This document shows, piece after piece, positions 14,066-17,360 of a stretch of DNA of 64,000 nt (within the stretch, counting starts at the first letter, position 1; each line of letters begins with the position of its first letter). This DNA is from Microbacterium profundi (GTDB taxonomy: Bacteria; Actinomycetota; Actinomycetes; Actinomycetales; Microbacteriaceae): positions 1,054,001 through 1,118,000 of the forward strand of contig NZ_JPSY01000001.1 in the NCBI RefSeq assembly GCF_000763375.1, given 5' to 3'. The position numbers and the translations under genes were made by a program. The notes beneath the pieces are model-generated. The model did no database searches and was not told where the DNA came from. It saw nothing but the letters and a program-made list of their open reading frames with translations.

Positions 14066-14992
14066 TCAGTGCACGTAGTCGGGAGCCGCAGCGAGCCCGA
14101 AGAACTCCTCGAGCGTGTGGAAGCCGCCGTCATGGTAGGCCACCGCGAGTTGCGGCCCGACGAAGCGGAGGTGCCACGGTTCCGGCATGTAGCCGGTCCG
14201 GTCGCTCGCGCCACTCTCATAGCGGACGACGTAGCCGTACTCCCACGCATGCTCGGCCACCCAGGCGGCCTGCGCGGTGCTGCCGAACGCGTCGATCTCA
14301 CCGCAGGCATCGCCGCACGCGACGACGTCCACAGCCAGCCCGGTCTGATGCTCGCTGAAGCCTGCGCGCGCCGAGCCCTCGTCCGCACCCGCGACGCCCT
14401 CGGCCGCGACGAAACCGGAATAGGTCGAGACCTGCAGGTTGTACGAGCGATAGCCGTTGTTGATCCCGAGCACTCCCGCACCCGACGCGTCAGCTGTCTG
14501 CGCGAGTGCGCCCAGCGCATCGCGCGCATCCGTCCGAAGGCGATCGGATGGTGTCGTGGATGCGAGATCGACGCCGTCGAGGCTTGACGGCTCGAAACCC
14601 AGAGGCGCCAGCGGGCGGGTCTTGTTCACCACCACCCAGATGCGGGCTGGATCACTCAGCGAAATGCACGGCGCGTTTCCCGCGATCACGGCGTCTCGAA
14701 AGGCCATACCTCCGCCGAACGCCGCGATCGCCGCCTCGTCGGCGCCCGCCGCGAGCGCCTCGGCGACTGCCGCATCCGCACACGGGTCAGCCGCGATGAC
14801 GCCGCCGACATCCACACCAGGCAGTTGAGCCGCGACGGCCGGCGTGGGAGGAAGCTCGGCGTCCGCCGCGGCCGGCACATCGACGACGGCCCACAGCATC
14901 CCGAGCGCCGTCACGGCCAGGCCGATGGGCAGCGCGACGACCAGCACGCGCGACGGACGCGAGGCGTGCCGTGGGTGGTGGGCGCCGCTCAT
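14066..14992 (-). CDS. D-alanyl-D-alanine carboxypeptidase family protein (M15B, VanY-like)
   Basis: 308-residue membrane-anchored peptidase acting on cell-wall peptides. An uncleaved anchor (VLVVALPIGLAVTALGMLWAVV, about 16-37) precedes an extracellular domain. The M15 zinc site is clear: SEHQTGLAVDV (His and Asp ligands) and EPWHLRFVG (catalytic Glu-adjacent and His ligand); FVAAEGVAGADEGSARAG precedes it. The region around 75-115 (CADAAVAEAL) is not part of the catalytic fold. The start is six bases past CACAAT, and the gene diverges from the intein-bearing radical SAM gene. Confidence 0.88.
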   Translation of the reverse strand: MSGAHHPRHASRPSRVLVVALPIGLAVTALGMLWAVVDVPAAADAELPPTPAVAAQLPGVDVGGVIAADPCADAAVAEALAAGADEAAIAAFGGGMAFRDAVIAGNAPCISLSDPARIWVVVNKTRPLAPLGFEPSSLDGVDLASTTPSDRLRTDARDALGALAQTADASGAGVLGINNGYRSYNLQVSTYSGFVAAEGVAGADEGSARAGFSEHQTGLAVDVVACGDACGEIDAFGSTAQAAWVAEHAWEYGYVVRYESGASDRTGYMPEPWHLRFVGPQLAVAYHDGGFHTLEEFFGLAAAPDYVH

Positions 14993-15041: not shown

Positions 15042-15070
15042 TTGACTTAACATCGTGCATTTGTTCGAAT
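15042..15070 (+). promoter_or_regulatory. Promoter of the radical SAM gene, leaderless
   Basis: TTGACT (15042-15047), exactly 17 bases, TCGAAT (15065-15070), then six bases to the ATG at 15077. This spacing fixes the start codon and suggests a transcript without a 5' leader. Confidence 0.7.
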
Positions 15071-15076
15071 GAGTTC

Positions 15077-16753
15077 ATGCGATGGCAGGGACAGACGATC
15101 GACGACGCGGATGACGCGGCGCTGCCGGGCATGGAGAACCGCACGGGTATCGTCCGCTCCGTGACGACGCCGGAGTTCGCGGGGATGACGTTCCACGAGG
15201 TGCTGGCGCGCTCCGCGCTGAATCACGTGCCCAGCGGCTCGCGTATGCCGTTCAGCTGGACGATCAATCCCTACCGCGGATGCAGTCATGCATGCGTGTA
15301 CTGCGTATCCCCCGACACGCTGGTGCTGTGCGCAGATGGACGGCAGCGTCGGATCGATGATCTCCTGGTCGGCGACGAGATCATCGGCACGGAGCGTCAA
15401 GGAAACTACCGCCGATATGTCCGCACACGAGTGCTCGCAAAGTGGGGTACTCAAAAGCCGGCCTATCGAGTCACCCTGGCAGACGGGACCGTGATCATTG
15501 CGAGCGGGGATCACCGATTTCTCACCGATCGTGGATGGAAGCACGTTGCGGATGCTGAGCGAGGCCAGCGCCCGCACCTCACCGCGAACAATAGGCTCAT
15601 GGGATTCGGCGCACAGGTCGCGCGTCCTGAGATCCTCCAACTCATCACTTCATCGATGACGGAGCTGCGGATTCCGCATGTAAGCGAGCCGCCGCGACCC
15701 AACGGCGTCTCTTGCGTCCGCGTTACAGGCGGACTTCCTCAGCGCCAAAGGTTCTTCGACCTCACGCAACCAGCCATTATGAGGAAGCTCGGCATTGAGG
15801 GGAGCGCCGTGAAGTCGGCATCCGACCTCCGAATCGTCGCGGTCGACGCACTCGGTGAGACGCGAGATCTTGTCGACATCACGACAGGAACTGGCGATTT
15901 CATCGCTAACGGAGTAATAAGTCACAATTGCTTCGCTCGCGGAACGCATGAGTACCTCGACCTCGACGGTGGTGGCGACTTCGATTCGCAGATCGTCGTG
16001 AAGACCAACGTCGCCGAAGTGCTCGCGAAAGAGCTGCGGAAAGGCAGCTGGCAGCACGAGAGCGTCGCGCTCGGCACGAACACCGATCCGTACCAACGTG
16101 CCGAAGGCCGTTACAAACTGATGCCCGACATCATCCGCGCCCTCGCGGAATCCGGCACCCCGTTCTCGATCCTCACCAAGGGAACGTTGATCCGGCGCGA
16201 CATCCCGATATTGAGGGATGCTGCGAAGCACGTGCCAATCGACATCCAGATGTCCATCGCAATGTACGACGACGCACTGCAGCACTCGATCGAGCCGGGA
16301 ACGCCTTCGACACAAGCGCGGCTCGACACCGTGCGCGCTCTGACTGATGCGGGGTTCCGCGTGGGCGTCTTCCTGATGCCCGTTCTGCCGCACCTCACCG
16401 ACTCGGTCGCGGCCATCGATCACGCGTTGCAGCGCATCGAGCAGACCGGCGCCGACCACGTCATCTACGGCGCCCTGCATCTGCGCGCCGGGGTCAAGCC
16501 CTGGTTCATGCAATGGCTCGGGCGCGAGCATCCGGAACTCATGTCGTCGTACCGCGAGCTGTATCCGGGCGCAGCGGCCGATGCTCCGAAGGCGTACCGG
16601 CAGTGGTTGGCGAAGCGGGTGCGTCCGCTGATCCGTGCGCACGGGCTCGAGGCGCGCCATTCAGACGACGACGCATACCCTGCTCGGCAGCTCACTCGGC
16701 CGACGCACTTGCGCACGACCGCCGCCGCTCAGCCTGCGCCAACTCTGTTCTGA
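15077..16753 (+). CDS. Rv2578c-type radical SAM protein interrupted by an intein
   Basis: 558-residue precursor; splicing would give 349 residues, close to the mycobacterial Rv2578c family. N-extein: MRW start, PGMENRTGIVRSV, FHEVLARSALNHVP, NPYRGCSHACVYC. C-extein: CFARGTHEYLDL, DFDSQIVVKTNVAEVL, LGTNTDPYQRAEG, ILTKGTLIRRD, ending APTLF. The radical SAM cluster motif CxxxCxxC is C69, C73 and then the junction cysteine. In the precursor that third cysteine is intein Cys76; after splicing C285 takes its place, so only the spliced protein has the native cluster sequence. Role of the enzyme family is unknown. Start fixed by the promoter at 15042. Confidence 0.93.
   Translation: MRWQGQTIDDADDAALPGMENRTGIVRSVTTPEFAGMTFHEVLARSALNHVPSGSRMPFSWTINPYRGCSHACVYCVSPDTLVLCADGRQRRIDDLLVGDEIIGTERQGNYRRYVRTRVLAKWGTQKPAYRVTLADGTVIIASGDHRFLTDRGWKHVADAERGQRPHLTANNRLMGFGAQVARPEILQLITSSMTELRIPHVSEPPRPNGVSCVRVTGGLPQRQRFFDLTQPAIMRKLGIEGSAVKSASDLRIVAVDALGETRDLVDITTGTGDFIANGVISHNCFARGTHEYLDLDGGGDFDSQIVVKTNVAEVLAKELRKGSWQHESVALGTNTDPYQRAEGRYKLMPDIIRALAESGTPFSILTKGTLIRRDIPILRDAAKHVPIDIQMSIAMYDDALQHSIEPGTPSTQARLDTVRALTDAGFRVGVFLMPVLPHLTDSVAAIDHALQRIEQTGADHVIYGALHLRAGVKPWFMQWLGREHPELMSSYRELYPGAAADAPKAYRQWLAKRVRPLIRAHGLEARHSDDDAYPARQLTRPTHLRTTAAAQPAPTLF
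15302..15928 (+). other. Mini-intein (209 residues)
   Basis: Begins with Cys76 of the precursor (CVSPDTLVLCADGRQRRIDD, block A) and ends VISHN before extein Cys285 (block G, with penultimate His and terminal Asn). Block B is IASGDHRFLTDRGW and block F is DLVDITTGTGDFIANG. At 209 residues there is no room for an active LAGLIDADG endonuclease, but the segment NRLMGFGAQ to SAVKSASDLR looks like the edges of a deleted one. Its codon choice is less GC-rich than the flanks (for example AAAGTGGGGTACTCAAAAG), consistent with horizontal acquisition. Confidence 0.92.
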
Positions 16754-16820
16754 CAACGCACTGTTCTGACGACCCCGTCGCGGTCAGGCCTGCCCCGGCT
16801 GGCACGTAGGCTCAGTGACT

Positions 16821-17360
16821 ATGGCAATCGGCGCGATGATCCACACGTTCACGGTGCAACTCGCCGATACGGACCGCGGCGTCTACGACGACCTCACGCT
16901 CCGCGTCGCACGGCATCCGTCCGAGACCGACGCATACATGGTGACCCGCACGCTCGCCTACTGCCTGGAGTACGTCGAGGGCATCGTCTTCGGCGCCGGC
17001 ATCTCGTCGACGGAAGAACCTGCGGTGCTCGTGCGCGATCTCACCGGCAAGGTCACCGTGTGGATCGAGGTCGGAGCCCCTGACGCCGAACGTCTGCACT
17101 ACGGCAGCAAGCTGGCCGACCGGATCGTCGTCTACACGCACCGCGATCCGATCAAGGTCATCGCACCATGGGCGGGCAAGCGCATCCACAACGCCGAGGC
17201 GATCGAGGTGTTCAGCTTCGACCCCGGCTTCGTCGATGCCGCGGCCGCGGTGCTCGAGCGACGCAACACCGTGACGCTGACTGTCACTGAGCAGCAGCTG
17301 TACCTCGACCTGAACGGGACCACTCTGAGCTCTGCGATCCACGTACGCGGCATCGACTGA
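16821..17360 (+). CDS. YaeQ family protein
   Basis: 179-residue member of the YaeQ family (a PD-(D/E)xK nuclease-like fold; biological role unsettled). Visible family pattern: ATG-AIGAMIHTFTVQLADTD, LRVARHPSETDAYMVTRTLAY, then WIEVGAPDAERLHYGSKLAD, VYTHR and a C-terminal beta region (VTLTVTEQQLYLDLNG). The ATG at 16821 aligns best with YaeQ; a GTG six bases earlier (16815) is also open. A TAGGCT hexamer lies eight bases before the ATG, suggesting a very short leader or none. A terminator-rich region separates it from the convergent helicase gene. Confidence 0.88.
   Translation: MAIGAMIHTFTVQLADTDRGVYDDLTLRVARHPSETDAYMVTRTLAYCLEYVEGIVFGAGISSTEEPAVLVRDLTGKVTVWIEVGAPDAERLHYGSKLADRIVVYTHRDPIKVIAPWAGKRIHNAEAIEVFSFDPGFVDAAAAVLERRNTVTLTVTEQQLYLDLNGTTLSSAIHVRGID

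What the first reader, a model, noticed from the sequence alone, without database searches (positions are those of the whole stretch)
15302..15928. Mini-intein inserted exactly at the third cysteine of a radical SAM cluster motif
The radical SAM CxxxCxxC of an Rv2578c-type protein is C69, C73, C76 in the precursor, but C76 is the intein's own first residue; after splicing C285 replaces it. Splicing chemistry therefore consumes and restores a cluster ligand, so iron-sulfur assembly and splicing could influence each other (thiol redox could gate splicing). The intein is 209 residues, with remnants of a lost homing endonuclease. The same gene has a leaderless promoter.
Basis: partly seen in the sequence, partly recalled or inferred. 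Interest (0 to 1): 0.8.

Follow-up and report, generated by a model that had tools for sequence, protein, structure and literature searches.

The report
Shrunken intein at an iron-sulfur cysteine
A self-removing protein insert sits exactly at one of the three cysteines expected to hold the iron-sulfur cluster of a bacterial enzyme; inserts of this class are already catalogued, but the same cysteine carries inserts in several other enzyme families of the superfamily, which makes redox control of the splicing worth testing.

Summary
Window 15077-16753 (+) encodes a 558-residue Rv2578c-family radical SAM protein with a 209-residue class 1 intein (C76-N284), inserted exactly before the third cysteine of CxxxCxxC (C69, C73, C76; C285 replaces C76 after splicing). 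As a kind it is known: NCBIfam has a model for it (NF038136), and this protein exceeds its cut-off. In the genus set 27 of 95 genomes with the gene are interrupted, 22 by a full-length insert. The window's copy is a recent deletion derivative: relative P0002 keeps both LAGLIDADG motifs, which lie in the two in-frame segments (95 and 41 residues) missing here; otherwise the two inteins differ at 2 of 209 residues. Beyond the finding, the same third cysteine carries inteins, both junctions seen, in four further radical SAM families (PA0069, AmmeMemoRadiSam, NrdG2, Tes) and probably in the spore-photoproduct-lyase family; these inteins fall into at least three groups by sequence. A review describes a redox trap in Pyrococcus abyssi MoaA. 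Redox gating here is plausible (C73/C76 is an inherited CxxC) but unshown. The promoter looks leaderless and overlaps a conserved LexA-like box, half-degenerate here; it belongs to the host gene.

The parts
15077..16753 (+). Rv2578c-family radical SAM protein gene, precursor of 558 aa plus stop
   Evidence: ORF; NF038135 498.6 bits, cut-off 430; NF038136 765.1 bits, cut-off 700
15077..15301 (+). N-extein, residues 1-75, ending ...CSHACVY
15281..15283 (+). C69, first cysteine of CxxxCxxC
   Evidence: invariant in 42 aligned sequences
15293..15295 (+). C73, second motif cysteine; position -3 to the intein, so C73-x-x-C76 is a CxxC pair
   Evidence: invariant
15302..15928 (+). intein, 209 aa, C76 to N284
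15302..15304 (+). C76 = intein Cys1; stands as third CxxxCxxC cysteine in the precursor
15503..15514 (+). block B 'SGDH' (SxxH where the usual motif is TxxH), S143-H146
   Evidence: invariant in 42 aligned sequences; position checked
15611..15625 (+). AQVAR island; relative to P0002, 95 residues are missing before it and 41 after it
   Evidence: DNA comparison with L025
15611..15832 (+). remnant of the homing endonuclease region; both LAGLIDADG-like motifs of P0002/P0003 are absent
15833..15928 (+). intein blocks F and G, ...DITTGTGDFIANGVISHN
15929..15931 (+). C285, +1 nucleophile; becomes third motif cysteine after splicing
15929..16750 (+). C-extein, residues 285-558
15042..15047 (+). -35-like TTGACT
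   Evidence: position conserved upstream of relatives; not called by the sigma-70 scan
15053..15068 (+). LexA/SOS-like box TCGTGCATTTGTTCGA (2 mismatches to TCGAAC-N4-GTTCGA, both in the left half; consensus recalled)
   Evidence: upstream of recA in the same genome lies TCGAATATGTGTTCGA
15065..15070 (+). -10-like TCGAAT, 6 nt before ATG (leaderless arrangement)

Best explanation
A deletion-shortened class 1 intein whose ancestors homed, by a LAGLIDADG endonuclease, into the DNA that encodes the radical SAM motif of Rv2578c-family genes. The full-length form is scattered among Microbacterium-like actinobacteria; in this strain two in-frame segments with both endonuclease motifs are gone, so it should no longer home but should still splice, because the enzyme needs exact removal to regain its third motif cysteine. 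Expected chemistry: C76 makes a thioester with Y75, C285 takes over the N-extein, N284 cyclises, and C69-C73-C285 then hold the [4Fe-4S] cluster. Shown by sequence: place, splice motifs, missing segments, relatives at the same site. Inferred: that it splices, that endonuclease activity is gone, that the cluster forms only after splicing. The C73-x-x-C76 pair could form a disulfide that blocks the first step under oxidation, as reported for P. abyssi MoaA; I rate that as a built-in susceptibility rather than a selected switch.
For: Intein-specific family model above cut-off. Splice residues invariant in 42 aligned sequences. P0002 and M. murale P0003 keep both LAGLIDADG-like motifs; ours lacks exactly those segments, in frame. 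Outside the missing segments our intein differs from P0002's at 2 of 209 residues (133, 139), so no sign of decay. Against L025 (taken as M. murale: its contig length equals that of P0003's contig) dN/dS is 0.098 and 0.090 in the splicing halves, 0.061 in the endonuclease remnant, 0.037 and 0.061 in the exteins (much of that time may precede the deletion). Insertion is patchy: 27 of 95 genomes with a match in the genus set (99 searched), 4 of 58 in the family set (80 searched), 11 of 49 in the class set (118 searched); ours is counted in all three and one genus member in two. On an extein tree of 44 genus genes the filled/empty label needs at least 10 changes, 6 of them forced by well-supported branches.
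Against: No splicing was measured. PF14890 stays just under its cut-off. Block B has SxxH instead of TxxH, though all 42 aligned sequences share it. The tree rows were not a random draw: the interrupted genes of the genus set were fetched (L034 left out for its internal stop), but of the empty ones only those with the best match scores plus a partial one (L058); the label is somewhat more clustered than in shuffles (mean 14.2), so the count of 10 is illustrative. dS of 1.55 in the endonuclease remnant is near saturation.
Confidence: 0.88

Rival explanations
1. Redox-gated splicing: oxidation joins C73 and C76 in a disulfide, holds the precursor inactive but reducible, and spares the oxygen-labile cluster until conditions are reducing. 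The intein would be kept partly because it is useful.
For: The CxxC pair is invariant in 42 aligned sequences. A review describes such a Cys1/N-extein disulfide in MoaA (PMC10663303, passage). M. smegmatis DnaBi1 shows that an intein can be a thiol switch (PMC6195587, passages). The host gene carries a LexA-like box, so it may be made when DNA is being damaged.
Against: C73 is conserved because it belongs to the cluster motif, so its conservation says nothing about a switch. Most homologues in the genus, family and class sets lack the intein, so the enzyme does not need it. The two other cysteines inside our intein are not conserved: C85 varies among C, M, A, T, K, L and R, C213 is Ala in P0003. 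PMC6195587 itself says that redox inhibition is not universal among inteins.
Confidence: 0.2
2. Cluster gating: the precursor, which still reads CxxxCxxC, binds iron or a cluster through C69, C73 and C76; that ties up the splicing nucleophile, so iron status would set the splicing rate.
For: The linear motif C69-x3-C73-x2-C76 is intact in the precursor. Metal inhibition of intein splicing is in print for mycobacterial DnaB and zinc (PMC7360933, title and start of abstract seen in the listing).
Against: In the precursor C76 should sit in the intein active site, not in the radical SAM barrel; no structure could be predicted, so no geometry supports it.
Confidence: 0.08
3. Dead insertion: the deletion left an intein that no longer splices, and the gene is on its way out.
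For: The deletion looks recent (2 of 209 remaining residues differ from full-length P0002).
Against: The open frame has no stop or frameshift and the splice residues are intact. Four other short forms in the genus set (154-160 residues, all with the C-junction in frame) show that endonuclease-free forms occur repeatedly.
Confidence: 0.07

Closest known systems
NCBIfam NF038136 rSAM_Rv_intein (intein-containing Rv2578c family radical SAM protein)
   Same: Same host family, homologous intein, same site; above the model's cut-off
   Different: 112 of the 120 relatives listed (the window's own protein among the 120) are 675-728 aa long, i.e. full-length; ours lacks both LAGLIDADG-like motifs (lengths counted)
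Pyrococcus abyssi MoaA intein (Callahan et al. 2011; known here from a passage of PMC10663303; the paper itself is not held)
   Same: Radical SAM host (by recalled knowledge); Cys1 of the intein can pair with an N-extein cysteine; oxygen-sensitive enzyme
   Different: Different family and domain of life; redox trapping is reported there and only possible here. That the MoaA intein sits at the third CxxxCxxC cysteine is my inference, not checked by a call
NCBIfam NF045703 rSAM_Tes_intein (tetraether lipid synthase)
   Same: Intein at the third CxxxCxxC cysteine (NRCNLSCWY/C...SN/CFFY in L118 and L119)
   Different: Intein not detectably related to ours (best BLAST E 1.6 between the groups); archaeal, 439-451 aa
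Inteins of PA0069 (NF033668), AmmeMemoRadiSam (TIGR04337) and NrdG2 (TIGR02495) radical SAM proteins
   Same: Same cysteine
   Different: PA0069 inteins are homologous to Rv2578c ones (best pair 56% identity); AmmeMemo and NrdG2 inteins form another group (best pair 26% identity, E about 1e-34) without a significant hit to Rv2578c inteins
Mycobacterium tuberculosis RecA and SufB inteins
   Same: RecA mini-intein 2imz_A is the best solved-structure hit (E 4.1e-5); SufB is an iron-sulfur scaffold protein whose intein is oxidant-sensitive (PMC6195587, passage)
   Different: Other hosts and sites; SufB not compared by sequence here

Membership tests
Class 1 intein | Cys1 plus block A at the N-junction | tested here: met
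   C76-VSPDTLVLCADG; TIGR01445 27.9 bits against cut-off 24.5
Class 1 intein | Block B TxxH | tested here: inconclusive
   SGDH: His invariant, Ser instead of Thr, in all 42 aligned sequences
Class 1 intein | Block G His-Asn and +1 Cys/Ser/Thr | tested here: met
   H283, N284, C285 invariant in 42
Class 1 intein | Hint fold | not testable with these tools
   Structure prediction switched off; only sequence similarity to solved inteins, and PF14890 just under its cut-off
Class 1 intein | Actual splicing | not testable with these tools
   Needs expression
Mini-intein derived from a LAGLIDADG intein | No LAGLIDADG motifs, homologous full-length form exists | tested here: met
   P0002 and P0003 keep YLAGMIRGDG and FLAGIFDAEG; both absent here
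Rv2578c radical SAM family | Family model above cut-off, CxxxCxxC | tested here: met
   NF038135 498.6 bits, cut-off 430; C69, C73, C76/C285
Redox-trap intein (MoaA type) | N-extein cysteine close to Cys1 | tested here: met
   C73 at -3; distance in space not tested
Redox-trap intein (MoaA type) | Oxidant-reversible block of splicing | not testable with these tools
   Needs biochemistry
LexA/SOS regulon | LexA box in the promoter | tested here: met
   34 of 40 upstream regions have at most 3 of 12 mismatches at -25 to -23; 36 of 40 within 80 nt, against 160 of 2000 random 80-nt windows of the same loci. The 40 are those of 58 loci with an MRW-type start and 80 nt of upstream DNA. Ours has 2 mismatches, both in the left half
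LexA/SOS regulon | LexA binding or damage induction | not testable with these tools
   Needs biochemistry

The most novel reading that the evidence does not exclude
The third cysteine of the radical SAM motif is a convergent intein hot spot: unrelated intein lineages have settled there in at least five radical SAM families (six with the half-seen spore-photoproduct-lyase case, seven if MoaA has the same site), and because the motif is CxxC up to that point each arrival brings its own thiol switch between the splicing nucleophile and the neighbouring cluster ligand, so that activation of an oxygen-labile enzyme is tied to redox state.
Probability: 0.2. Interest if true: 0.8.

Novelty: new member of a known kind. 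Interest (0 to 1): 0.45.

Why it matters
If splicing is redox-gated here, the nucleophile, its disulfide partner and the metal ligands would be one three-cysteine motif, and the same test could be run across several enzyme families. Even if it is not, the set gives several settlements at one residue for asking why inteins sit there, and the window's copy is a fresh case of endonuclease loss with a near-identical full-length relative. The conserved LexA-like box also bears on a question that a 2026 paper calls speculative, whether Rv2578c proteins act in DNA repair (PMC12924846, passages).

Tried and rejected
Rejected: 'ordinary extension without intein blocks' (splice residues invariant, uninterrupted relatives in the genus). 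Not supported: phage or plasmid carriage of this intein; no match at E 1e-5 among 50,697 phage and 72,556 plasmid records, and no confirmed relative in one viral-contig scan with a single-protein query. Not supported: a conserved thiol partner inside the intein. From the pattern scan L068 is a normal MoaA without an intein, and L070, L080 and L099 do not look like radical SAM proteins.

Limits of the cross-family claim. The pattern scan looked only at the third cysteine, with Tyr before it, a block A shape, and a middle base other than A in the third codon of the motif (to keep most Rv2578c out); it cannot say that cysteines 1 and 2 are avoided. Evidence not conditioned on the third cysteine is smaller: the 39 interrupted Rv2578c loci, Tes L118 and L119, and G503, whose AmmeMemo match breaks around model positions 81-86, like the preselected G294 at 85-89 (G503 not read as sequence). 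In one search, 34 of 81 genomes had a match and only these two show a break, 78 of 80 genomes had an NrdG2 match and in the listed part only the preselected G293 shows one (the list was cut). In nine intein-bearing genomes 45 intein N-terminal matches were listed; I read 36 (the other nine were the preselected ones) plus one. By motif and by eye only L147 among the 36 is a radical SAM protein, and it is the already counted L088 gene; several matches begin inside the intein, so their exact junctions were not read. The tree of intein N-terminal regions (55 rows, 123 columns) sets Rv2578c+PA0069 (100/99), Tes (100/98) and, less firmly, AmmeMemo+NrdG2 (92/72) apart, but the AU test does not reject one clade of all radical SAM inteins (p 0.097), and AmmeMemo and Tes inteins do match each other (E 2.6e-18). 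The MoaA intein was found by no call.

Led nowhere: papers with 'intein' and 'Rv2578c' (none); 'Rv2578c' and 'LexA' (none). That Rv2578c of M. tuberculosis is in a published SOS-box list is recalled, not read.

Full report
WHAT IS THERE. The gene runs from ATG 15077 to 16753 on the + strand, between a VanY-type carboxypeptidase gene (14066-14992, -) and a YaeQ gene (16815-17360, +). Its 558-residue product scores above the cut-offs of NF038135 (Rv2578c radical SAM family) and of NF038136, NCBI's own model for intein-containing members. The intein is C76 to N284, codons 15302-15928. In the precursor the motif still reads C69-x3-C73-x2-C76, but C76 is intein residue 1; after splicing C285 follows Y75 and completes CSHACVYC. 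In an alignment of 42 sequences (ours plus 41 of the 120 proteins listed) C69, C73, C76, H146, D267, H283, N284 and C285 do not vary.

HOW IT BECAME SHORT. P0002 (693 aa, 98% identity over the best-aligned 49%) and P0003 of Microbacterium murale (92%) keep two motifs, YLAGMIRGDG and FLAGIFDAEG. Against P0002 our intein lacks 95 residues, keeps the five-residue island AQVAR, then lacks 41 more; both motifs lie in the missing parts (DNA comparison with L025). Whether that is two deletions or one complex event cannot be told without P0002's DNA. The remaining 209 residues differ from P0002 at two places; dN/dS against L025 is 0.06-0.10 in the intein segments. Four other genus members have shorter forms of 154-160 residues; they stand at different places of the extein tree, so endonuclease loss has probably happened more than once.

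HOW COMMON. By match length, 27 of 95 genomes with a match in the genus set (99 searched) are interrupted: 22 full-length, 4 short, and ours. In the family set 4 of 58 (80 searched), ours included; in the class set 11 of 49 (118 searched), ours and one genus member included. I read 39 interrupted loci: all break at the third cysteine, and 38 show the C-junction in the same frame; L034 has an in-frame TAG. A different kind of break, about 10 kb in G270, is not at this site. On an extein tree of 44 genus genes (26 filled, 18 empty) the label changes at least 10 times (6 forced by well-supported branches; shuffled mean 14.2), and near-identical exteins differ in state (L037 filled, L058 empty, the latter a partial gene). 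The empty rows were mostly the best-scoring ones, so this is a picture, not an estimate.

THE SAME CYSTEINE ELSEWHERE. One scan of the genome collection (84,980 species) for C-x3-C-x-Y-[C plus intein block A], built to leave out most Rv2578c, gave 56 loci. By N-extein 42 are AmmeMemoRadiSam-type, 5 NrdG2, 3 PA0069, 1 Rv2578c, 1 spore-photoproduct-lyase family, 1 a MoaA, 3 apparently not radical SAM (my reading). Ten of the 56 were checked with NCBIfam: four AmmeMemo (TIGR04337), two NrdG2 (TIGR02495) and two PA0069 (NF033668) exceed their cut-offs; the lyase-family one (L067, open frame of 209 residues) scores 133 against 437.55; the MoaA (L068) is a normal one without intein. Of the 52 that look like radical SAM inteins 36 show the matching C-junction in the same open frame (30 AmmeMemo, 3 NrdG2, 2 PA0069, 1 Rv2578c); of the other 16, 12 run into the end of the locus and 4 stop early (L067, L083, L090, L113). 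Independently of that pattern, tetraether lipid synthase Tes carries an intein at the third cysteine in 2 of 148 genomes searched.

HOW MANY ARRIVALS. The best PA0069/Rv2578c intein pair is 56% identical, so they share an origin. AmmeMemo and NrdG2 inteins match each other (26%, E about 1e-34) better than either matches the 30 non-radical-SAM inteins compared. Tes inteins match non-radical-SAM inteins better (up to 113 bits) than AmmeMemo ones (83 bits, E 2.6e-18). Rv2578c inteins have no significant hit in the AmmeMemo, NrdG2 or Tes groups. Three groups therefore look separate. A tree of the N-terminal regions agrees but is weak: the AU test does not reject a single clade (p 0.097).

MECHANISM. 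Most likely standard class 1 splicing of a homing relic. The site fits the general rule that inteins lie at conserved C/S/T positions, near active sites (PMC3359363, passages). A redox switch is possible because an intein at this cysteine always has another cysteine three residues before it. A review describes such a trap in MoaA of P. abyssi, where oxidation blocks the first step (PMC10663303, passage); the original paper is not held. Nothing here shows that it operates in this protein, and most relatives in the three genome sets do without the intein.

PROMOTER. TTGACT-17-TCGAAT-6-ATG, no Shine-Dalgarno-like sequence by eye: leaderless is a fair reading, though the sigma-70 scan did not call it. 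The majority upstream block is TCGAAC-N4-GTTCGAAT, which fits the actinobacterial LexA box as I recall it; upstream of recA in the same genome lies TCGAATATGTGTTCGA. Of 58 loci, 40 had an MRW-type start and 80 nt upstream: 34 of these 40 have at most 3 of 12 mismatches at -25 to -23, and 36 somewhere in the 80 nt, against 160 of 2000 random windows of the same loci, promoters not excluded. Filled and empty genes share it, so it belongs to the host gene. Ours has two mismatches, both in the left half.

NOVELTY. The intein is a shortened new member of a catalogued class. I found no paper in the held library on radical SAM inteins at this cysteine (searches), apart from MoaA in a review; most subscription journals are not held.

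Intein difference 2 of 209 (not 204), cysteine 85 (not 84), families with both junctions five including Rv2578c (not six), promoter box counted at its fixed place.

Noticed in passing
window 15053-15068; upstream of relatives: LexA/SOS-like box overlapping the promoter of the Rv2578c-family gene, conserved with and without the intein.
   Followed up: yes
L059, L060 (G270:C5:268713-279685): An Rv2578c-family gene split by about 10 kb, with model positions 125-129 matched on both sides, as an integrated element might leave; a Streptomyces phage is known to integrate in this gene family (PMC12924846, passages).
   Followed up: no
L161:2131-5238 (-): Archaeal NuoB-like protein with an intein directly before the Cys of 'IAMGA/C-SITGGLY', by recalled knowledge a ligand of cluster N2: another iron-sulfur ligand used as +1 residue. 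Family not confirmed by a model.
   Followed up: partly
L034 (G019:C61): Full-length intein-containing Rv2578c gene with one in-frame TAG.
   Followed up: no
L076, L078, L079, L088, L102, L105: AmmeMemoRadiSam-type genes with shortened inteins (175-206 aa) at the same cysteine, so short forms recur there too.
   Followed up: partly
L083, L090, L113: AmmeMemo-type open frames that stop inside the intein away from the locus end: decayed copies or sequencing errors.
   Followed up: no
L067:2113-2739 (+): Rubrobacter spore-photoproduct-lyase-family N-half followed by an intein start at the third cysteine; the frame stops 96 residues into the intein.
   Followed up: partly
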